Part shown: positions 20,234 through 27,828 of the stretch, piece after piece
Position numbering within the stretch: the first letter of the stretch is position 1
Layout of the letters: each line of letters begins with the position of its first letter
NCBI GenBank assembly: GCA_029721435.1
Contig: CM056592.1
Coordinates: 36,777,611-36,841,610 of the forward strand
From: Gymnothorax reevesii
Taxonomy: Eukaryota; Chordata; Actinopteri; Anguilliformes; Muraenidae
Reading direction: 5' to 3'
DNA length: 64,000 nt
Made by a program: the position numbers and the translations under genes
The notes under the pieces: generated by a model
Databases searched by the model: none
What the model was told of the DNA's origin: nothing
What the model saw: only the letters and a program-made list of their open reading frames with translations

Positions 20234-20859
20234 CTACAAAACCCAAAACCAATGAAGTTGGCACCTTGTGTAAATCATAAATAAGAACAGAATACAATGA
20301 TTTGCAAATCCTTTTCAACCTATATTCAATTGAATACACTGCAAAGACAAGCTACTTAATGTTCAAACAGGTAAATTTTGTAATTTTTTGCAAATATTAG
20401 CTCATTTGGAATTTGATGCCTGCAACATGTTTCAAAAAAGCTGGCACAAGTGGCAAAAAAGACTGAGAGAGTTGAGGAATGCTCATCAAACACTTATTTG
20501 GAACATCCCACAGGTGAACGGGCTAATTGGGAACAGGTGGGTGCCATGATTGGGAGTAAAAGCAGCTTCCCTGAAATGCTCAGTCATTCACAAACAAGGA
20601 TGGGGCGAGGGTCACCACTTAGTGAACAAATGCGTGAGCTGATTGTCGAACAGTTTAAAAACAACATTCCTCAACGAGCTATAGCAAGAAATTTAGGGAT
20701 TTCATCATCTACGGTCTGTAATATTGTCAAAATGTTCAGAGAATCTGGAAAAATCACTGCACGTAAGCGACAAGGCCGAAAACCAACATTCAATGCCCGT
20801 GACCTTCGATCCCTCAGACAGTACTGCATCAAAAACTGACATCAGTGTGTAAAGGACAT

Positions 20860-21336
20860 TGTTATGGCCCCAATTTGTTATCACATTTACACACAACAGC
20901 AACAGCAAGGGATGACAGACACAGTTTTAAAAACCTCAACACATTTAATTAAACACAACAACTAACTAAACTGACCAAGATTGAATTATATACAAAACAT
21001 AAATATTTACAATCCCTTTTCGTGGGGTGGCTTGGTGATGTCCTGGATGATGAAAATGCTCAAACACAGGCAAAGAAATCCACAAAAGAAACGTCACAGG
21101 TCTTGAACAGAATGGCAGGTCTGGTCATCTTCTTGCAATTTCTCCTACTACTTTACTGTCTCAATTCTTTTCCTTATATACTCTTTTGCAGACCCCACCC
21201 ACATTTAGACCTCTTTTTTTTAATTTTCTGAGACTTGCCCCAGACATGTCCAGGACATGTCTAAACATGACTCCAGTCTGAGCTTAACAAAAAAAAAGGT
21301 AAATACTGCCATCTATTGGCCTATATTCACATTACA
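20860..21336 (-). repeat. 3' LTR of the Gmr1-type element
   Basis: 477 bp, almost identical to 26364-26839; differences seen are CTATTGG versus CTAGTGG and one extra A in an A-run. Confidence 0.95.
21231..21272. promoter_or_regulatory. Same half-site cluster in the 3' LTR
   Basis: Identical arrangement at 21231-21240, 21242-21251, 21253-21262 and 21263-21272. In this LTR the cluster would act on sequence outside the element. Confidence 0.5.
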
Positions 21337-21352
21337 CCTCCATTCCAAAGGG
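21337..21352 (-). other. Putative polypurine tract
   Basis: The minus strand immediately upstream of the 3' LTR reads TTTGGAATGGAGG, purine-rich and directly abutting the TG of the LTR. Confidence 0.5.
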
Positions 21353-21469
21353 CAAAAATTTTGACTCAAAAAGGCAAAATTTTTCTTTTCAATACAAAAT
21401 GGTTAAGTGAACACTTGTCTATATACACATATCATACAATATTCAAACACATGATATATATATACACAT

Positions 21470-24400
21470 TCAAACACGGGATAAGCAATCTGCAATTACA
21501 TTGTCTGTACCCTTCACATGCTTAATTTCCAAGTCAAACTCCTGTAAAATCAAACTCCAATTCAACAATCTCCGATTCTTGTTTTTCATCTTACTCAAAA
21601 ACATTAACGGATTGTGGTCAGTGTACACAATCATTGGCTTTTGTCCTGTACAAACATAAACCTCAAAGTGTTGTAAAGAAAGGACCAGAGCCAACAGTTC
21701 CTTCTCTATTGTGGAATAGTTCCTTTGGTGGCGATTGAACTTCCTGGAGAAGTATGCCACGGGATGCTCAATGTCATCAGAGTCACTTCTCTGTAGGAGC
21801 ACAGATCCACAAGCTTGGTCGCTAGCATCGACCGCGATGGAGAACGGTTTGTTGAAGTCAGGAGATTTGAGCACGGGGAAGTGACACAGCAGAGACTTCA
21901 GGTGATCGAAGGCTCTCTGGCATGCATCATCCCAGGAGAACTTTACGCCTTTCTTCAGTTGGTTAGTTAGACTGAGAGCAATCTCAGCAAAGTTCTTGCA
22001 GAACTTGCGGTAGTACCCGATCATTCCAAGGAAGCGGCGCAAAGCTTTTTTGTTGTCAGGAACTGGAAAGTCCATGATGGCTTGGACTTTAGCATTTATG
22101 GGTGCCACCTTACCCTGGCCTATGATGTAGCCAAGATAGGTGACAGTAGCACAACCAAAGTCACTCTTGCTCAGGTTAACAGTCAGGTTAGCCTGGGTCA
22201 GGCGCTGGAACAACGTCTCTACATCTTTTAGATGTTCTTCCCAGGAGTCACTCCATGTGATCAGGTCATCGATGTACGCACCCGTGTGTGGCAATCCGGC
22301 GATTGTAGACTGTATCATCCTTTGGAACGTGGCTGGGGCATTTTTCATGCCAAAGGGTAGGACTTCATACTGGTACAATCCAGATGGTGTGGCAAAAGCA
22401 GAGATGCTCTTGGCCCTCTCAGTTAAAGGCACACACCAATAACCCTTCAATAAATCAATCTTGGTCAGAAACTTTGCTTGCCCTACACTATCAATACAAT
22501 CATCAATCCTAGGTATTGGAAACACATCAGTTCTAGTTACAGCATTGACTTTGCGATAATCTGTACAGAATCTAGTACTTCCATCAGGTTTTGGAACTAG
22601 CACACAGGGTGAACTCCAATCGGAGTTGGAGGGTCTGATAATATCATGTTTTAACATGTACTCAACCTCTTTCTCAGCAATCTTTCTCTTTTCAGGATTC
22701 ATCCGGTATGGATGCTGTTTTATTGGTTTGGCATCACCAACATCTACATCATGAGAGGCTATAGTAACTCTCTTTGGAACATCAGGAAACAAATCCTCAT
22801 ATTTCTTGATCAACCTCTCAAACTGATCTCTCTGTGAGGGTTCTAAGTGCTGGAGTTTTACATCAAGATTTTGCAACACTTTAGTGTTTGACAATTTACA
22901 TGAAAGAACTTCAGCTTTAATTCTTGGTTCATCATCTTGAAACTCCCCCTCATCTTCACACGTTTTGACCATGGGAGAATCTGAAGTGACAGATGCAACC
23001 CTAGCATTTCTGTCATGATAAGGCTTCAGCATGTTAATGTGACACAATTGTTTTGGTTTTCTCCTATCTGGAGTCTTCACAATGTAATTGAGATCATTGA
23101 GTTTTGTCAGAATTTCATAAGGACCATGAAATCTAGCCTGCAATGGATTGGACTGCAAGGGAAACAACACAAGGACCTTGTCTCCTGGTTTAAACACACG
23201 GCTTCTAGCCTTATGATCATACCAAGTTTTCATTTTTCCCTGACTTGATTTCAAGTTCTCTTTGGCAAGGTCACAAGCTGCACGCAATCTTTCCTTGAAC
23301 TTGCCAACATAGTCTAACAGACTGATATGCGGCTCTTTCTCTTGCCATTGTTCACTCAATAATAGCAAAGGTCCTCTCACTTCATGACCAAACACTAGCT
23401 CAAATGGACTGAATCCAGTAGACTCCTGCACTGCTTCTCTAGCTGCAAACAACAGCAAATGAACCCCTTCATCCCAGTCTTTCTCATGGTCATAACAATA
23501 AGTCCTCATCATTGTCTTGAGAGTGGAATGAAACCGCTCTAAGGCACCCTGACTTTCTGGATGATAGGCACTAGAAAGAATCTGCTTTGCACCTAGTTCA
23601 TACACAACCTGCTGAAACAATCCTGAAGTGAAATTGCTACCCTGGTCTGACTGAATTTCCCTGGGAAGGCCAAACAACGTGAAGAACTTTATCAAAGCCT
23701 TCGAGATTGCAGTTGCCTTGATGTTACGTAGAGGTATGGCTTCGGGGAATCTGGTAGATGCACACATGATTGTCAACAAGTACTGATTTCCAGATCTAGT
23801 CTTGGGTAATGGACCAACGCAATCAACAATGACCCTAGAGAATGGCTCCCCAAATGCTGGGATAGGCTGCAATGGAGCTACAGGTGGGTCTAACTGGTGT
23901 TTTCCAACTACCTGACAAGTGTGACAGGTTTTGCAAAAGTTGGAAACGTCTTTCCGAAGCCCAGGCCAAAAGAAGTGTTTCATGATCTTATCAACAGTCT
24001 TGTTAACACCAAGATGACCTCCTAAAGGTAAACTATGAGCCATTGTTAATATCTCATTCCTATAGACCTTCGGAACAACAATTTGCCTGACCACTGCCCA
24101 ATCTGCATTGGCAGGGATATCAGGAGGGCGCCACTTCCGCATCAACACACCATCCTTGAGATAATACCCAACTGGAACTGCGTCTATTTCTTTATCAGGA
24201 AGGGCTCTCCTCTTTAGTACACAAATTTCAGGATCATTAGTTTGCTCCTCAATCAACCGCTTTCTGGACAGAGACAAGTCTCCAGACACATCAGAATCAC
24301 CAGACCCATCCGGCTGGCTGAATAGAGAACTGATAAAAGTATCTGATAAGTCCTCAAACGGAGAAACCATAGTAGGCCAATCAGAGTCATGAGGCGAACC

Positions 24401-25903
24401 ACCTGAGTCCTGACTATTCAATGTACTGGACGGCACCACATCATCTTCTTCTTTAGCCTTCTTGGCCATAGCACGAGTCACTGCGCAAGAAGGATACAGA
24501 GATGGGTCCTCATCCCCATCTTCAGTGCTCGGCTGTGAAGTAAGAGGTACAGGGGGAACTACTTTGCCCCCAGCCAGGTCATTGCCTAGCAACAGAGAAA
24601 CACCCTTTATAGGTAGACTTGACATAAGTCCCACCTTTACCTGTCCTGTAACTAAATCTGACTTCAAGAATATAGAGCGCAGGGGTACAGATACAGTCCT
24701 CCCTTCAATACCTTGTACAAGTATGAAATCCCCTGAAGCGGTCTCATCACGTAACTCCAAGGAGTCCATCAACAAAAGTGACTGAAAAGCTCCGGTATCC
24801 CTTAGGATATATATGGGGACAGGAGTAGTATGCTCATTCAGAGCCACAAATCCCTCTGACACAAATGGAAGAAATTCCTCCCTCACAAAGTCAGCTGTAT
24901 TAGGCTTTTTAGCCCCACAAGAAGCAGGCAATTTAGCAGATCGGTCATCTACTACAGGGGTTTCTAACCTTGTTTTCACAAAGGCATTTGGTTTGGTATC
25001 CTTTTCTTTTTCTTTCTTAGCTTTAAGGAACCAACAGTTAGTTGTAACATGACCAGATTTCTTGCAATAACTGCAAACTAGACCACTTTTGTCACTGTCA
25101 GCTTTCACACTTTGATCAGACCTGTTACTGGATTTCTGAGCACCATCACCAGATTTGTCTTTGTCTTTGGGTGAGGAATCTTGGGTATCACCGTAACCCT
25201 TTTTCTGAAATTGGGACCATCTGTTGTTACTGCTAGACTGAAATTTGGACTTATGTGTGAGAACATATTCATCTGCAAATTTGGCAGCTGATTGCAAATT
25301 CAGTGCTTGCTTCTCATTAAGGTAGGTCTTAATATCATCCTTAACACAGTTCTTGAATTCTTCAACTAACACCATCTCTTTTAGTGAGTTGAAATCATCC
25401 TTGACCTCCATAGAAGTACACCAGCGCTCAAAGCAAACCTTCTTCTCATTAGCAAATTCAACATAAGTCTGATTTTCAGATTTCTTCAGACCTCTGAATT
25501 TCTGTCGGTAAGCCTCTGGAACCAACTCATAAGCTCTCAAAATAACCTTTTTGACAATCTCATAATCAGAGGAATCATCGGCAGACAAAGCCGAATAGGC
25601 TTGTTGAGCTTTACCCTTGAGGACAGTTTGCAACATCAGAGGCCAGTGTTCCTTTGGCCACTGGCAACTCTTTGCTACCTTTTCAAAACACTGGAAATAG
25701 TTGTCAACATCCTTTTCCGAAAATGGAGGCACCAGTTTTACCTCCTGGCTAGCCCGAAATTTATTTTCAGTTTGAATTTTTATTTTTAGTTGCTCCATTT
25801 GGAGTCTTTCTTCTCTATCGAATTTCTCTAATTCAAAATCTCTCTGTCTTGCAAATTTTTCTAACTCAAATTCTCTTTGGTTTTTCTTTTTCTTCCCTCT
25901 CAA
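21470..25903 (-). CDS. Gmr1-type Gag-Pol polyprotein (Gag-PR-IN-RT-RH)
   Basis: 1477 codons without a stop. In order: coiled coil (1-45); SCAN-like Gag capsid region (about 55-205, with ILRAYELVPEAYRQKFR); CCHC zinc knuckle CSYCKKSGHVTTNC (about 276-290); aspartic protease with RDTGAF (about 368) and LLLGND; integrase with HHCC zinc finger (H-G-H..CKTCHTC, about 630-664), catalytic D (VDCVGPL, about 695), D (QSDQGSNF, about 753) and E (SQGALERFHS, about 788, D35E spacing); GPY/F motif (FHGPYEIL, about 928); reverse transcriptase with WSSPCVLVPKPDGSTRFCTD, LPFGMKNAPATFQR and YIDDL (about 1212); RNase H with VDASDQACGS (about 1359), TIEKELLAL and VYTDHNP. It ends at LSRV. All catalytic residues I can identify are present. 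It would encode every enzyme needed for copying and integration of the element; lack of a usable start because of the upstream shift is the doubt. Confidence 0.93.
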   Translation of the reverse strand: MRGKKKKNQREFELEKFARQRDFELEKFDREERLQMEQLKIKIQTENKFRASQEVKLVPPFSEKDVDNYFQCFEKVAKSCQWPKEHWPLMLQTVLKGKAQQAYSALSADDSSDYEIVKKVILRAYELVPEAYRQKFRGLKKSENQTYVEFANEKKVCFERWCTSMEVKDDFNSLKEMVLVEEFKNCVKDDIKTYLNEKQALNLQSAAKFADEYVLTHKSKFQSSSNNRWSQFQKKGYGDTQDSSPKDKDKSGDGAQKSSNRSDQSVKADSDKSGLVCSYCKKSGHVTTNCWFLKAKKEKEKDTKPNAFVKTRLETPVVDDRSAKLPASCGAKKPNTADFVREEFLPFVSEGFVALNEHTTPVPIYILRDTGAFQSLLLMDSLELRDETASGDFILVQGIEGRTVSVPLRSIFLKSDLVTGQVKVGLMSSLPIKGVSLLLGNDLAGGKVVPPVPLTSQPSTEDGDEDPSLYPSCAVTRAMAKKAKEEDDVVPSSTLNSQDSGGSPHDSDWPTMVSPFEDLSDTFISSLFSQPDGSGDSDVSGDLSLSRKRLIEEQTNDPEICVLKRRALPDKEIDAVPVGYYLKDGVLMRKWRPPDIPANADWAVVRQIVVPKVYRNEILTMAHSLPLGGHLGVNKTVDKIMKHFFWPGLRKDVSNFCKTCHTCQVVGKHQLDPPVAPLQPIPAFGEPFSRVIVDCVGPLPKTRSGNQYLLTIMCASTRFPEAIPLRNIKATAISKALIKFFTLFGLPREIQSDQGSNFTSGLFQQVVYELGAKQILSSAYHPESQGALERFHSTLKTMMRTYCYDHEKDWDEGVHLLLFAAREAVQESTGFSPFELVFGHEVRGPLLLLSEQWQEKEPHISLLDYVGKFKERLRAACDLAKENLKSSQGKMKTWYDHKARSRVFKPGDKVLVLFPLQSNPLQARFHGPYEILTKLNDLNYIVKTPDRRKPKQLCHINMLKPYHDRNARVASVTSDSPMVKTCEDEGEFQDDEPRIKAEVLSCKLSNTKVLQNLDVKLQHLEPSQRDQFERLIKKYEDLFPDVPKRVTIASHDVDVGDAKPIKQHPYRMNPEKRKIAEKEVEYMLKHDIIRPSNSDWSSPCVLVPKPDGSTRFCTDYRKVNAVTRTDVFPIPRIDDCIDSVGQAKFLTKIDLLKGYWCVPLTERAKSISAFATPSGLYQYEVLPFGMKNAPATFQRMIQSTIAGLPHTGAYIDDLITWSDSWEEHLKDVETLFQRLTQANLTVNLSKSDFGCATVTYLGYIIGQGKVAPINAKVQAIMDFPVPDNKKALRRFLGMIGYYRKFCKNFAEIALSLTNQLKKGVKFSWDDACQRAFDHLKSLLCHFPVLKSPDFNKPFSIAVDASDQACGSVLLQRSDSDDIEHPVAYFSRKFNRHQRNYSTIEKELLALVLSLQHFEVYVCTGQKPMIVYTDHNPLMFLSKMKNKNRRLLNWSLILQEFDLEIKHVKGTDNVIADCLSRV

Positions 25904-26273
25904 ATTCCCTTTCTTTTTCTCTTTCCTCCCTTTCTTTTTTCTCTTCTCTTGCTAATTTTTCCAACTCAAACTGCCTTTGTTTTTCTTTTTCTTCCCTTTC
26001 AATCTCTATCATTTTTAATTTAAGTTCCATTTCTATATTTGGATTTTCCACTGGAAACTGTTCCAGATCTCCTGGTGCAAACACATTTTCATCAATGTAA
26101 TATTCAACTATCTCTCTAGCCAGTCTTGCTTTTCGCATGGCTGGTTTCACCTCTGTCAGCTCTAAATGTCTGCAAATTTCTAGCAGTTCTGTCTTTTTAA
26201 AAGACTTCAAAACCCCTACGGTTGGTGATGCCAAGAAATCATCCATTGCTGTTGTCAATATATATGTATTCAA
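25866..26273 (-). CDS. Gmr1-type Gag leader frame (SAP-like plus Glu/Lys coiled coil)
   Basis: 135 codons starting MNTYILTTAMDDFLASP. Residues about 20-65 (VLKSFKKTELLEICRHLEL; RKARLAREIVEYYI) look like a SAP-type helix-turn-helix. Residues about 85-135 are an acidic/basic coiled coil with repeated REEKE, FELEKLAREEKKE-type units. The frame is left for the long frame at 25903 through a 38-bp overlap in low-complexity sequence. The long frame starts with the same FELEKF repeats, so one indel has probably split a single Gag-Pol frame; a programmed shift is less likely. This is the main defect in an otherwise intact element. Confidence 0.75.
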   Translation of the reverse strand: MNTYILTTAMDDFLASPTVGVLKSFKKTELLEICRHLELTEVKPAMRKARLAREIVEYYIDENVFAPGDLEQFPVENPNIEMELKLKMIEIEREEKEKQRQFELEKLAREEKKEREEREKEREFEREEKEKPKRI

Positions 26274-26344
26274 TTAAAAAAAAATCAATTTTACAATTTG
26301 AAATGTTAGATTTTCAATAAATTACTCACAAAATGGTCTATCCC

Positions 26345-26361
26345 GGACCTTGAGCCCCCAA
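26345..26361 (-). other. Putative primer binding site
   Basis: Two to three bases inside the 5' LTR the minus strand reads TGGGGGCTCAAGG, the usual TGG start of a tRNA-primer site. The matching tRNA was not identified. Confidence 0.45.
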
Positions 26362-26677
26362 TTTGTTATGGCCCCAATTTGTTATCACATTTACACACAA
26401 CAGCAACAGCAAGGGATGACAGACACAGTTTTAAAAACCTCAACACATTTAATTAAACACAACAACTAACTAAACTGACCAAGATTGAATTATATACAAA
26501 ACATAAATATTTACAATCCCTTTTCGTGGGGTGGCTTGGTGATGTCCTGGATGATGAAAATGCTCAAACACAGGCAAAGAAATCCACAAAAGAAACGTCA
26601 CAGGTCTTGAACAGAATGGCAGGTCTGGTCATCTTCTTGCAATTTCTCCTACTACTTTACTGTCTCAATTCTTTTCC

Positions 26678-26687
26678 TTATATACTC
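26678..26687 (-). promoter_or_regulatory. TATA box of the 5' LTR
   Basis: Minus strand reads AGTATATAAGG, a good TATA box about 155 bp into the LTR. The matching box in the 3' LTR is at about 21174-21183. Confidence 0.6.
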
Positions 26688-26734
26688 TTTTGCAGACCCC
26701 ACCCACATTTAGACCTCTTTTTTTTAATTTTCTG

Positions 26735-26776
26735 AGACTTGCCCCAGACATGTCCAGGACATGTCTAAACATGACT
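26735..26776. promoter_or_regulatory. Cluster of p53-type half-sites in the 5' LTR
   Basis: Four decamers against RRRCWWGYYY: AGACTTGCCC (perfect), 1-bp gap, AGACATGTCC (perfect), 1-bp gap, GGACATGTCT (perfect), then AAACATGACT (one mismatch). They lie 48-98 bp upstream of the TATA box in LTR sense. The motif match is seen directly; any p53-family binding is inference. Confidence 0.5.
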
Positions 26777-27828
26777 CCAGTCTGAGCTTAACAAAAAAAA
26801 GGTAAATACTGCCATCTAGTGGCCTATATTCACATTACAACATCACCACATGGGCTCAGGAACACTTCAGAAAATCACTGTCAGTAAATACAGTTCGTCG
26901 CTACATCTGGAAGTGCAAGTTAAAACTCTACAATGCAAAGCGAAAGCCATTTATCAACAGCACCCAGAAACGCCGCCGGCTTCGCTGGGCCCAAGCTCAT
27001 CTAAGATGGACTGATGCAAAGTGGAAAAGTGTTCTGTGGTCTGACGAATCCACATTTCAAATTGTTTTTGGAGACTGTGGACGTCGTGTCCTCCGGACCA
27101 AAGAGGAAAAGAACCATCCTGACTGTTATAGGCGCAAAGTTCAAAAGCCAGCATCTGTAATGGTATGGGGGTGTATTAGTGCCCAAGGCATGGGCAACTT
27201 TACACATATGTGAAGGCACCATTAATGCTGAAAGGTACATACAGGTTTTGGAGCAACATATGTTGCCATCCAAGAAACGTCTTTTTCATGGACGCCCTCG
27301 CTTATTTCAGCAAGACAATGCCAAGCCACATACTGCACGTGTTACAACAGCATGGTTCCGTAGTAAAAGAGTGCGAGTACTAGACTGGCCTGCCTGTAGT
27401 CCAGACCTGTCTCCCATTAAAAATGTGTGGTCCATTATGAAGCGTAAAATACGACAACAGAGACCCCGGACTGTTGAACATCTTTTTGTACATCGAGCAA
27501 GAATGGGAAAGAGTTCCACCTGAAAAGCTTCAAAAATTGTTCTCCTCAGTTCCCAAACGTTTACTGAGTGTTGTTAAAAGGAAAGGCGATGTAACACACT
27601 GGTAAAAAGGCCCCTGTGCCAACTTTTTTGCAATGTGTTGCTGCCTTTAAATTCTATGATAATGATTATTTGCAAAAAAAAAAAAAGTTTCTCAGTTTGA
27701 ACATTAAACATCTTGTCTTTGCAGTGTATTCAATTGAATATAAGTTGAAAAGGATTTGCAAATCATTGTATTCTGTTTTTATCTACAATTTACACAACGG
27801 GCCAACTTCACTGGTTTTGGGTTTTGTG

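What the first reader, a model, noticed from the sequence alone, without database searches (positions are those of the whole stretch)
20860..26839. Young Gmr1-type retrotransposon with integrase upstream of reverse transcriptase
The 1477-codon frame has integrase (HHCC and D,D35E, about residues 630-790) before reverse transcriptase (YIDD about 1212) and RNase H (about 1360), reversed from standard Ty3/Gypsy. This order is known for the Gmr1 clade. All catalytic residues I can identify are present, and the two LTRs differ by about one substitution and one indel, so the copy is recent and possibly still copied in trans.
Basis: partly seen in the sequence, partly recalled or inferred. Interest (0 to 1): 0.75.

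Follow-up and report, generated by a model that had tools for sequence, protein, structure and literature searches.

The report
Recent Gmr1 retrotransposon with bulged primer site
The window holds a recent copy of a known kind of jumping gene (a Gmr1 retrotransposon, with its integrase before its reverse transcriptase), one of thousands in this genome, and a three-letter insertion in its primer-binding site appears to be overwritten from the host tRNA in about a fifth of the copies, which yeast relatives are reported not to do.

Summary
A 5,980-bp LTR retrotransposon lies on the minus strand at 20860-26839, with a 4-bp target duplication, LTRs differing by one substitution and one indel, and order Gag(SCAN)-protease-integrase-RT-RNase H. 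The order is no artefact: 29 other copies at 98-99% protein identity were fetched, the 120 listed database relatives share it, and integrase-first elements separate cleanly in RT and integrase trees. Order plus SCAN-type Gag fit Gmr1; no named Gmr1 reference could be compared. The copy sits inside a Tc1-like transposon; its Gag start is out of frame with the rest.

New here is the primer-binding site. It matches tRNA-Pro but for a 3-nt insertion (AAG). Genome-wide, 4,239 exact places carry AAG and 1,103 the uninterrupted tRNA complement. The allele is unlinked to a SNP 15-18 nt away (T in 32/100 and 34/100 listed places), whereas SNP pairs within 60 nt are strongly linked. I read this as rewriting from tRNA-Pro in about one insertion in five. 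Ty1 and Ty3 are reported not to inherit primer-tRNA sequence (PMC5371799, section read). Why AAG persists is inference.

The parts
26840..26843 (.). target-site duplication, ACAT on + strand (ATGT in element sense), 5' side
   Evidence: 4-bp duplication in 28 of 30 copies
26364..26839 (-). 5' LTR, 476 bp, TGTA...AACA
26340..26360 (-). primer-binding site: 18-nt complement of tRNA-Pro 3' end interrupted by AAG at 26349-26351
25866..26273 (-). N-terminal Gag ORF (ATG at 26246): predicted small helical domain, then a long charged helix; frame differs from the next ORF
21470..25903 (-). 1,477-aa frame: rest of Gag, protease, integrase, RT, RNase H
25247..25519 (-). SCAN-family capsid region of Gag
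   Evidence: Pfam PF02023, E 7.5e-11
25034..25075 (-). CCHC-type zinc knuckle motif
   Evidence: read in sequence; Pfam only weak
24791..24799 (-). protease DTG motif
   Evidence: region conserved in 104 of 120 relatives
23906..24076 (-). integrase zinc-binding HHCC domain
   Evidence: Pfam PF17921
23558..23845 (-). integrase core as matched by Pfam rve; catalytic E789 lies just past the match
   Evidence: Pfam PF00665, D-D35E read
22121..22597 (-). reverse transcriptase, YIDD at 22265-22276
   Evidence: Pfam PF00078
21536..21934 (-). RNase H
   Evidence: Pfam PF17919 and PF17917
21337..21346 (-). polypurine tract next to 3' LTR (GGAATGGAGG)
20860..21336 (-). 3' LTR, 477 bp
20856..20859 (.). 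target-site duplication, other side
20236..27827 (.). interrupted host transposon of Tc1 type: inverted arms 20236-20448 and 27615-27827, transposase pieces 20450-20839 and 27179-27523 on +
   Evidence: HTH_23, DDE_3

Best explanation
A recently inserted Ty3/gypsy-type LTR retrotransposon of the Gmr1 kind (order Gag-PR-IN-RT-RH), one of a very large young family that carries a bipartite primer-binding site: two 9-nt blocks complementary to tRNA-Pro separated by AAG. The element is transcribed from its LTR, primed by tRNA-Pro with a 3-nt bulge, reverse transcribed and integrated with a 4-bp duplication. In most insertions the PBS comes from the element RNA (AAG kept). In about one in five it is replaced by a copy of the primer tRNA (exact 18-nt complement). 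Shown: anatomy, order, copy number, youth, the two alleles and their independence from a neighbouring SNP. Inferred: that tRNA-Pro primes, that the exact allele comes from copying the tRNA, and the rate per insertion.
For: Anatomy. Clade: 120 of 120 listed relatives integrase-first; split of 119 integrase-first from 98 RT-first with SH support 1.0 in both RT-RH and IN trees; an RT-first element from the same genome as contrast. Youth and abundance: 14 of 30 copies have identical LTRs, pooled LTR divergence 22 of 14,684 sites; 5,671 LTR-PBS junctions. Coding selection: median pairwise dN/dS 0.21 over all pairs of the 30 copies. PBS: AAG 4,239 and exact 1,103 places; the exact form is the full 18-nt complement of a tRNA-Pro(AGG) gene of this genome; no gene-like place with the AAG-bearing tRNA end, up to 2 mismatches. 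Allele versus SNP at +33: T in 32/100 exact and 34/100 AAG places (Fisher p 0.88), while 0 of 56 SNP pairs within 60 nt had r2 below 0.01 and the median r2 was 0.80.
Against: Only the first 100 places on one contig were listed for each allele, over different stretches of it. On the 30-copy tree the exact allele takes 5 steps, but 777 of 1,000 shuffles also give 5 and many ordinary SNPs are homoplastic, so the tree adds nothing. Against SNPs at -24, 80 and 90 the allele shows |D'| of 1, though r2 stays at or below 0.073. 4 of the 5 exact copies carry one LTR type, 12 of 30 copies, a possible link on the upstream side. Four exact tRNA-end places were scanned and only one was called tRNA-Pro. No named Gmr1 sequence was compared.
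Confidence: 0.72

Rival explanations
1. Two PBS subfamilies (exact and AAG) inherited from the RNA, mixed by recombination between co-packaged RNAs.
For: Recombination is extensive: median r2 falls from 0.80 within 60 nt to 0.03-0.04 beyond 200 nt. 4 of 5 exact copies share one LTR type.
Against: The nearest informative SNP is only 15-18 nt away and unlinked in 200 listed places, while SNP pairs within 60 nt keep strong linkage. The exact allele's share is about equal on both SNP backgrounds by these samples.
Confidence: 0.2
2. The exact site arises by repeated deletion of AAG without the tRNA.
For: Other length forms exist: of the 100 places listed, 71 AAG, 21 exact, 5 with AA, 2 with a GTC duplication, 1 other.
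Against: The exact tRNA complement is about four times as common as the AA form, although the AA form needs only one base lost from a GG run; AAG itself is not a repeat unit there (read from sequence).
Confidence: 0.08
3. An ordinary RT-first gypsy element that looks reversed because of assembly error.
For: None found.
Against: 29 further copies on many contigs, 120 of 120 listed relatives, separate branch in two trees.
Confidence: 0.01
4. AAG is encoded in a host tRNA-Pro variant and both alleles are tRNA copies.
For: Would explain why AAG persists.
Against: No place within 2 mismatches of the 26-nt variant end in the genome. That pattern assumes one T-arm sequence, so a more divergent variant would be missed.
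Confidence: 0.04

Closest known systems
Gmr1 clade of Ty3/gypsy retrotransposons (cod Gmr1; Gmr elements of Tetraodontiformes, PMC11117352; LGF3 of Lamellibrachia, PMC8220671)
   Same: Integrase upstream of RT, SCAN-related Gag, single gag-pol frame in most copies examined. Tetraodontiform Gmr1 is listed at 6,465 bp, LTR 518 bp, gag-pol 1,634 aa (passages of PMC11117352); here 5,980-6,125 bp, LTR 473-505, frames of 1,592-1,648 aa in uninterrupted copies.
   Different: PBS with an internal 3-nt insertion in most copies; very high copy number. Whether other Gmr1 elements have this PBS was not tested.
Mouse ETn/MusD/IAP endogenous retroviruses with imperfect common PBS (Cullen and Schorn 2020, PMC7472051)
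   Same: Commonest PBS is imperfect, perfect PBS scattered among close relatives; the authors speculate that the tRNA copy is inherited 50:50 and that imperfect sites escape tRNA-fragment silencing (section 13 read).
   Different: Those are retroviral elements in mouse; this is a gypsy-type element with an insertion, thousands of copies and a linkage test. The share of exact sites is near 21%, not 50%.
Yeast Ty3 and Ty1
   Same: RT-RNase H matches Ty3 best in the PDB sequence set (7q5b, E 1.3e-124). Bipartite PBS is reported for both (passages of PMC5371799).
   Different: Domain order; and in Ty1/Ty3 the PBS is reported not to be copied from the primer tRNA (section 6 read).

Membership tests
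Gmr1 clade | integrase upstream of reverse transcriptase in a gypsy-type element | tested here: met
   shared by 120 of 120 listed relatives
Gmr1 clade | Gag capsid related to the SCAN domain | tested here: met
   Pfam SCAN E 7.5e-11; origin of SCAN from a Gmr1-like element as stated in passages of PMC3406341
Gmr1 clade | integrase-first elements form a branch apart from RT-first gypsy elements | tested here: met
   217 of 242 sequences used (4 without both domains, 21 with short domains dropped); perfect split in both trees. RT-first side sampled from one query only
Gmr1 clade | groups with named Gmr1 references rather than Mag, Barthez or CsRn1 | not tested
   no named reference sequences at hand
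Ty3/gypsy | RT-RNase H closest to Ty3 among solved structures | tested here: met
Ty1/copia | copia-type RT (Pfam RVT_2) | tested here: not met
   one search lists RVT_1 and no RVT_2
retrovirus | env gene between pol and 3' LTR | tested here: not met
   pol frame ends 133-136 nt before the 3' LTR; no further frame of 90 aa or more there

The most novel reading that the evidence does not exclude
Gmr1-type elements use a mixed mode of PBS inheritance unlike Ty1/Ty3: about a fifth of insertions take the primer tRNA's own sequence. The AAG allele that bulges the primer duplex is kept by selection (for example escape from tRNA-derived fragments or from PBS-directed silencing), while tRNA-rewritten copies are mostly dead ends. 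Without such selection AAG should have decayed, because rewriting runs one way.
Probability: 0.3. Interest if true: 0.75.

Novelty: new variant of a known kind. Interest (0 to 1): 0.5.

Why it matters
Whether gypsy-type elements ever inherit the primer tRNA sequence has rested on yeast Ty1 and Ty3, reported not to. A natural 3-nt tag in thousands of young copies makes the question countable in any genome of this lineage, and offers a test of the idea that imperfect primer sites are favoured because they dodge silencing. The element itself is an ordinary Gmr1.

Tried and rejected
Assembly artefact for the domain order: rejected. PBS allele as a phylogenetic character on the 30-copy tree: uninformative, because shuffles and ordinary SNPs are as scattered. 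Relatives in viral contigs: none (104 stretches matched a pattern, none confirmed). Pairing RT and integrase hits of the family lists by coordinates: by eye I found no shared places between the two capped lists (150 scored of 56,849 and of 19,805 candidates). AAG-bearing PBS in other sequence contexts: 9 places only, not followed up. N-terminal Gag domain: no Pfam hit at E up to 1 ahead of SCAN in 5 relatives and none for the window ORF at E up to 0.1; structure model pLDDT 91.6; no PDB fold match with E at or below 0.001 among 57. Literature: searches in an open-access library listed no paper that I recognised as describing tRNA-copied PBS in Gmr1; this is not proof of absence. Goodwin and Poulter 2002 and Lauermann and Boeke 1994 were seen only as citations.

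Full report
What is there. The window belongs to a 2.17-Gb genome. On the minus strand, 20860-26839 is a complete LTR retrotransposon: 476- and 477-bp LTRs with TG...CA ends, a PBS 3 nt inside the 5' LTR, a polypurine tract at the 3' LTR and a 4-bp duplication of the target. It sits inside a Tc1-like transposon, between pieces of its transposase (HTH_23 and DDE_3) within 213-nt inverted arms that are 84% complementary.

Domain order. Pfam places a SCAN-type capsid region, integrase (H2C2, rve, p58_C), RT and RNase H in that order; the zinc-knuckle and protease DTG motifs and the D,D35E triad were read in the sequence. The order is not a quirk of this copy: 32 matches including this one were scored in the genome at 98-100% identity over nearly the whole query (44,257 candidates, capped). 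Among the 120 best-listed database relatives (of 2,633 hits) integrase precedes RT in 120 of 120. With 120 listed relatives of an RT-first element of this genome, 217 of 242 sequences could be used; the 119 integrase-first ones separate from the 98 RT-first ones without exception in the RT-RNase H tree and in the integrase tree, SH support 1.0. The same split in both trees fits one old change of domain order in the common ancestor of the group (inference).

Membership. Passages of PMC8220671 give the integrase-upstream order as the mark of Gmr1, and PMC3406341 derives the SCAN domain from a Gmr1-like capsid. Both features are met. Placement against named references was not possible.

Age and activity. 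Of the 30 full copies read (this one included, chosen by protein similarity to it), 14 have identical LTRs, 28 have a 4-bp duplication, and pooled LTR divergence is 22 substitutions in 14,684 sites. The copy here has 1 substitution and 1 indel, so it is recent though not among the youngest. Its internal region differs by 1.01% from the nearest of the other 29 and pairwise dN/dS against them has a median of 0.28 (range 0.18-0.46; all pairs 0.21), so most coding differences arose while the lineages were still replicating under selection, not after insertion (inference). Gag starts in another frame than the rest of the protein in this copy and in 4 others; 6 have in-frame stops and 19 are uninterrupted. 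So this copy would need proteins from other copies; that is inferred.

The primer-binding site. After 5' LTR + AAT comes TGGGGGCTC AAG GTCCGGGAT. Without AAG this is the exact 18-nt complement of the 3' end of tRNA-Pro(AGG), a gene found in this genome. Predicted duplex energies are -41.8 kcal/mol for the exact site and -36.2 with the 3-nt bulge. Counts: 5,671 LTR-PBS junctions with up to 24 nt between the two halves; of 5,705 places with up to 3 nt between the halves and the downstream context, 4,239 carry AAG and 1,103 are exact, which leaves 363 of other forms or with another letter at the SNP. The exact share of the two main forms is 20.6%. Of the first 100 places, 71 are AAG, 21 exact, 5 AA, 2 a GTC duplication and 1 other (counted by eye).

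Linkage. In the 30 copies the PBS allele (5 exact) has r2 of 0.003, 0.076, 0.05 and 0.004 with SNPs at +33, +41, +49 and +63, whereas those SNPs among themselves, in pairs up to 30 nt apart, have r2 of 0.30-0.86 with |D'| of 1. For three other SNPs (-24, 80, 90) |D'| with the PBS allele is 1, with r2 at most 0.073. In the wider internal region the median r2 is 0.80 within 60 nt (56 pairs, none below 0.01), 0.16 at 61-200 nt, and 0.03-0.04 beyond: the family recombines heavily, yet close sites stay linked. In the genome listings the SNP at +33 is T in 32 of 100 exact and 34 of 100 AAG places (counted by eye). Both samples are the first 100 places on contig C1 (0-175 Mb and 0-64 Mb). In the smaller joint listing it is T in 4 of 20 exact and 26 of 78 AAG places (p 0.29). 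On the upstream side the evidence is thin: 4 of 5 exact copies carry one LTR type, found in 12 of 30 copies.

Reading. The exact allele behaves like something stamped on single insertions, not like an inherited haplotype. The obvious stamp is the primer tRNA, whose copying in retroviruses leaves its sequence on one strand of the new DNA. Ty1 and Ty3 are reported to avoid this by repeated plus-strand priming (PMC5371799, section 6), and PMC7472051 (section 13) states that they strictly inherit their PBS. A mixed mode, about one in five, would be new for a gypsy-type element as far as I saw in the searches named under Tried and rejected.

Why AAG stays. Rewriting from the tRNA can only remove AAG, since no AAG-bearing tRNA end was found. 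If exact copies were equally good sources, AAG would fall by about a fifth per round and could not still make up four fifths of copies that differ by 0.5-1.7%. Hence exact copies probably rarely act as sources. The escape from tRNA-fragment silencing proposed for mouse ERVs (PMC7472051) is one cause; a few AAG master copies are another. This step is inference and was not tested. The tree of 30 copies cannot decide it.

Verdict. The PBS polymorphism is what deserves attention.

Noticed in passing
window 25877-26039 and the same stretch in other copies: 33-nt repeats in Gag encode an 11-residue charged repeat, predicted as one long helix (residues 78-130 of the ORF); uninterrupted gag-pol frames vary from 1,592 to 1,648 aa, and 5 of 30 copies lose frame in this stretch.
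   Followed up: partly
window 26034-26246 (Gag N terminus): Small conserved helical domain before the long helix, no Pfam hit; model with high confidence; weak PDB matches (all E above 1) include Rho, Ku70, Tho1, DEK, FAN1 and 3'hExo, which I recall as carrying SAP or SAP-like domains.
   Followed up: partly
5' LTR end and PBS start, window 26353-26387: The last LTR bases repeat the LTR-PBS junction (ATAACAAATTGGGG occurs inside the LTR end and again across the junction; sequence printed).
   Followed up: no
G000:C1 45626130/45631622, 13483155/13488679, 70002557/70008421: Pairs of LTR-PBS junctions 5.5-5.9 kb apart on one strand with the same PBS form, as expected of tandem elements sharing an LTR.
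   Followed up: no
G000:C1 33-48 Mb: All 5 AA-form PBS places among the 100 listed lie in this stretch, none in the first 33 Mb; could be chance or a local duplication.
   Followed up: no
30 copies, internal region: Linkage between SNPs decays to background within about 200 nt, a sign of frequent template switching between element RNAs.
   Followed up: partly
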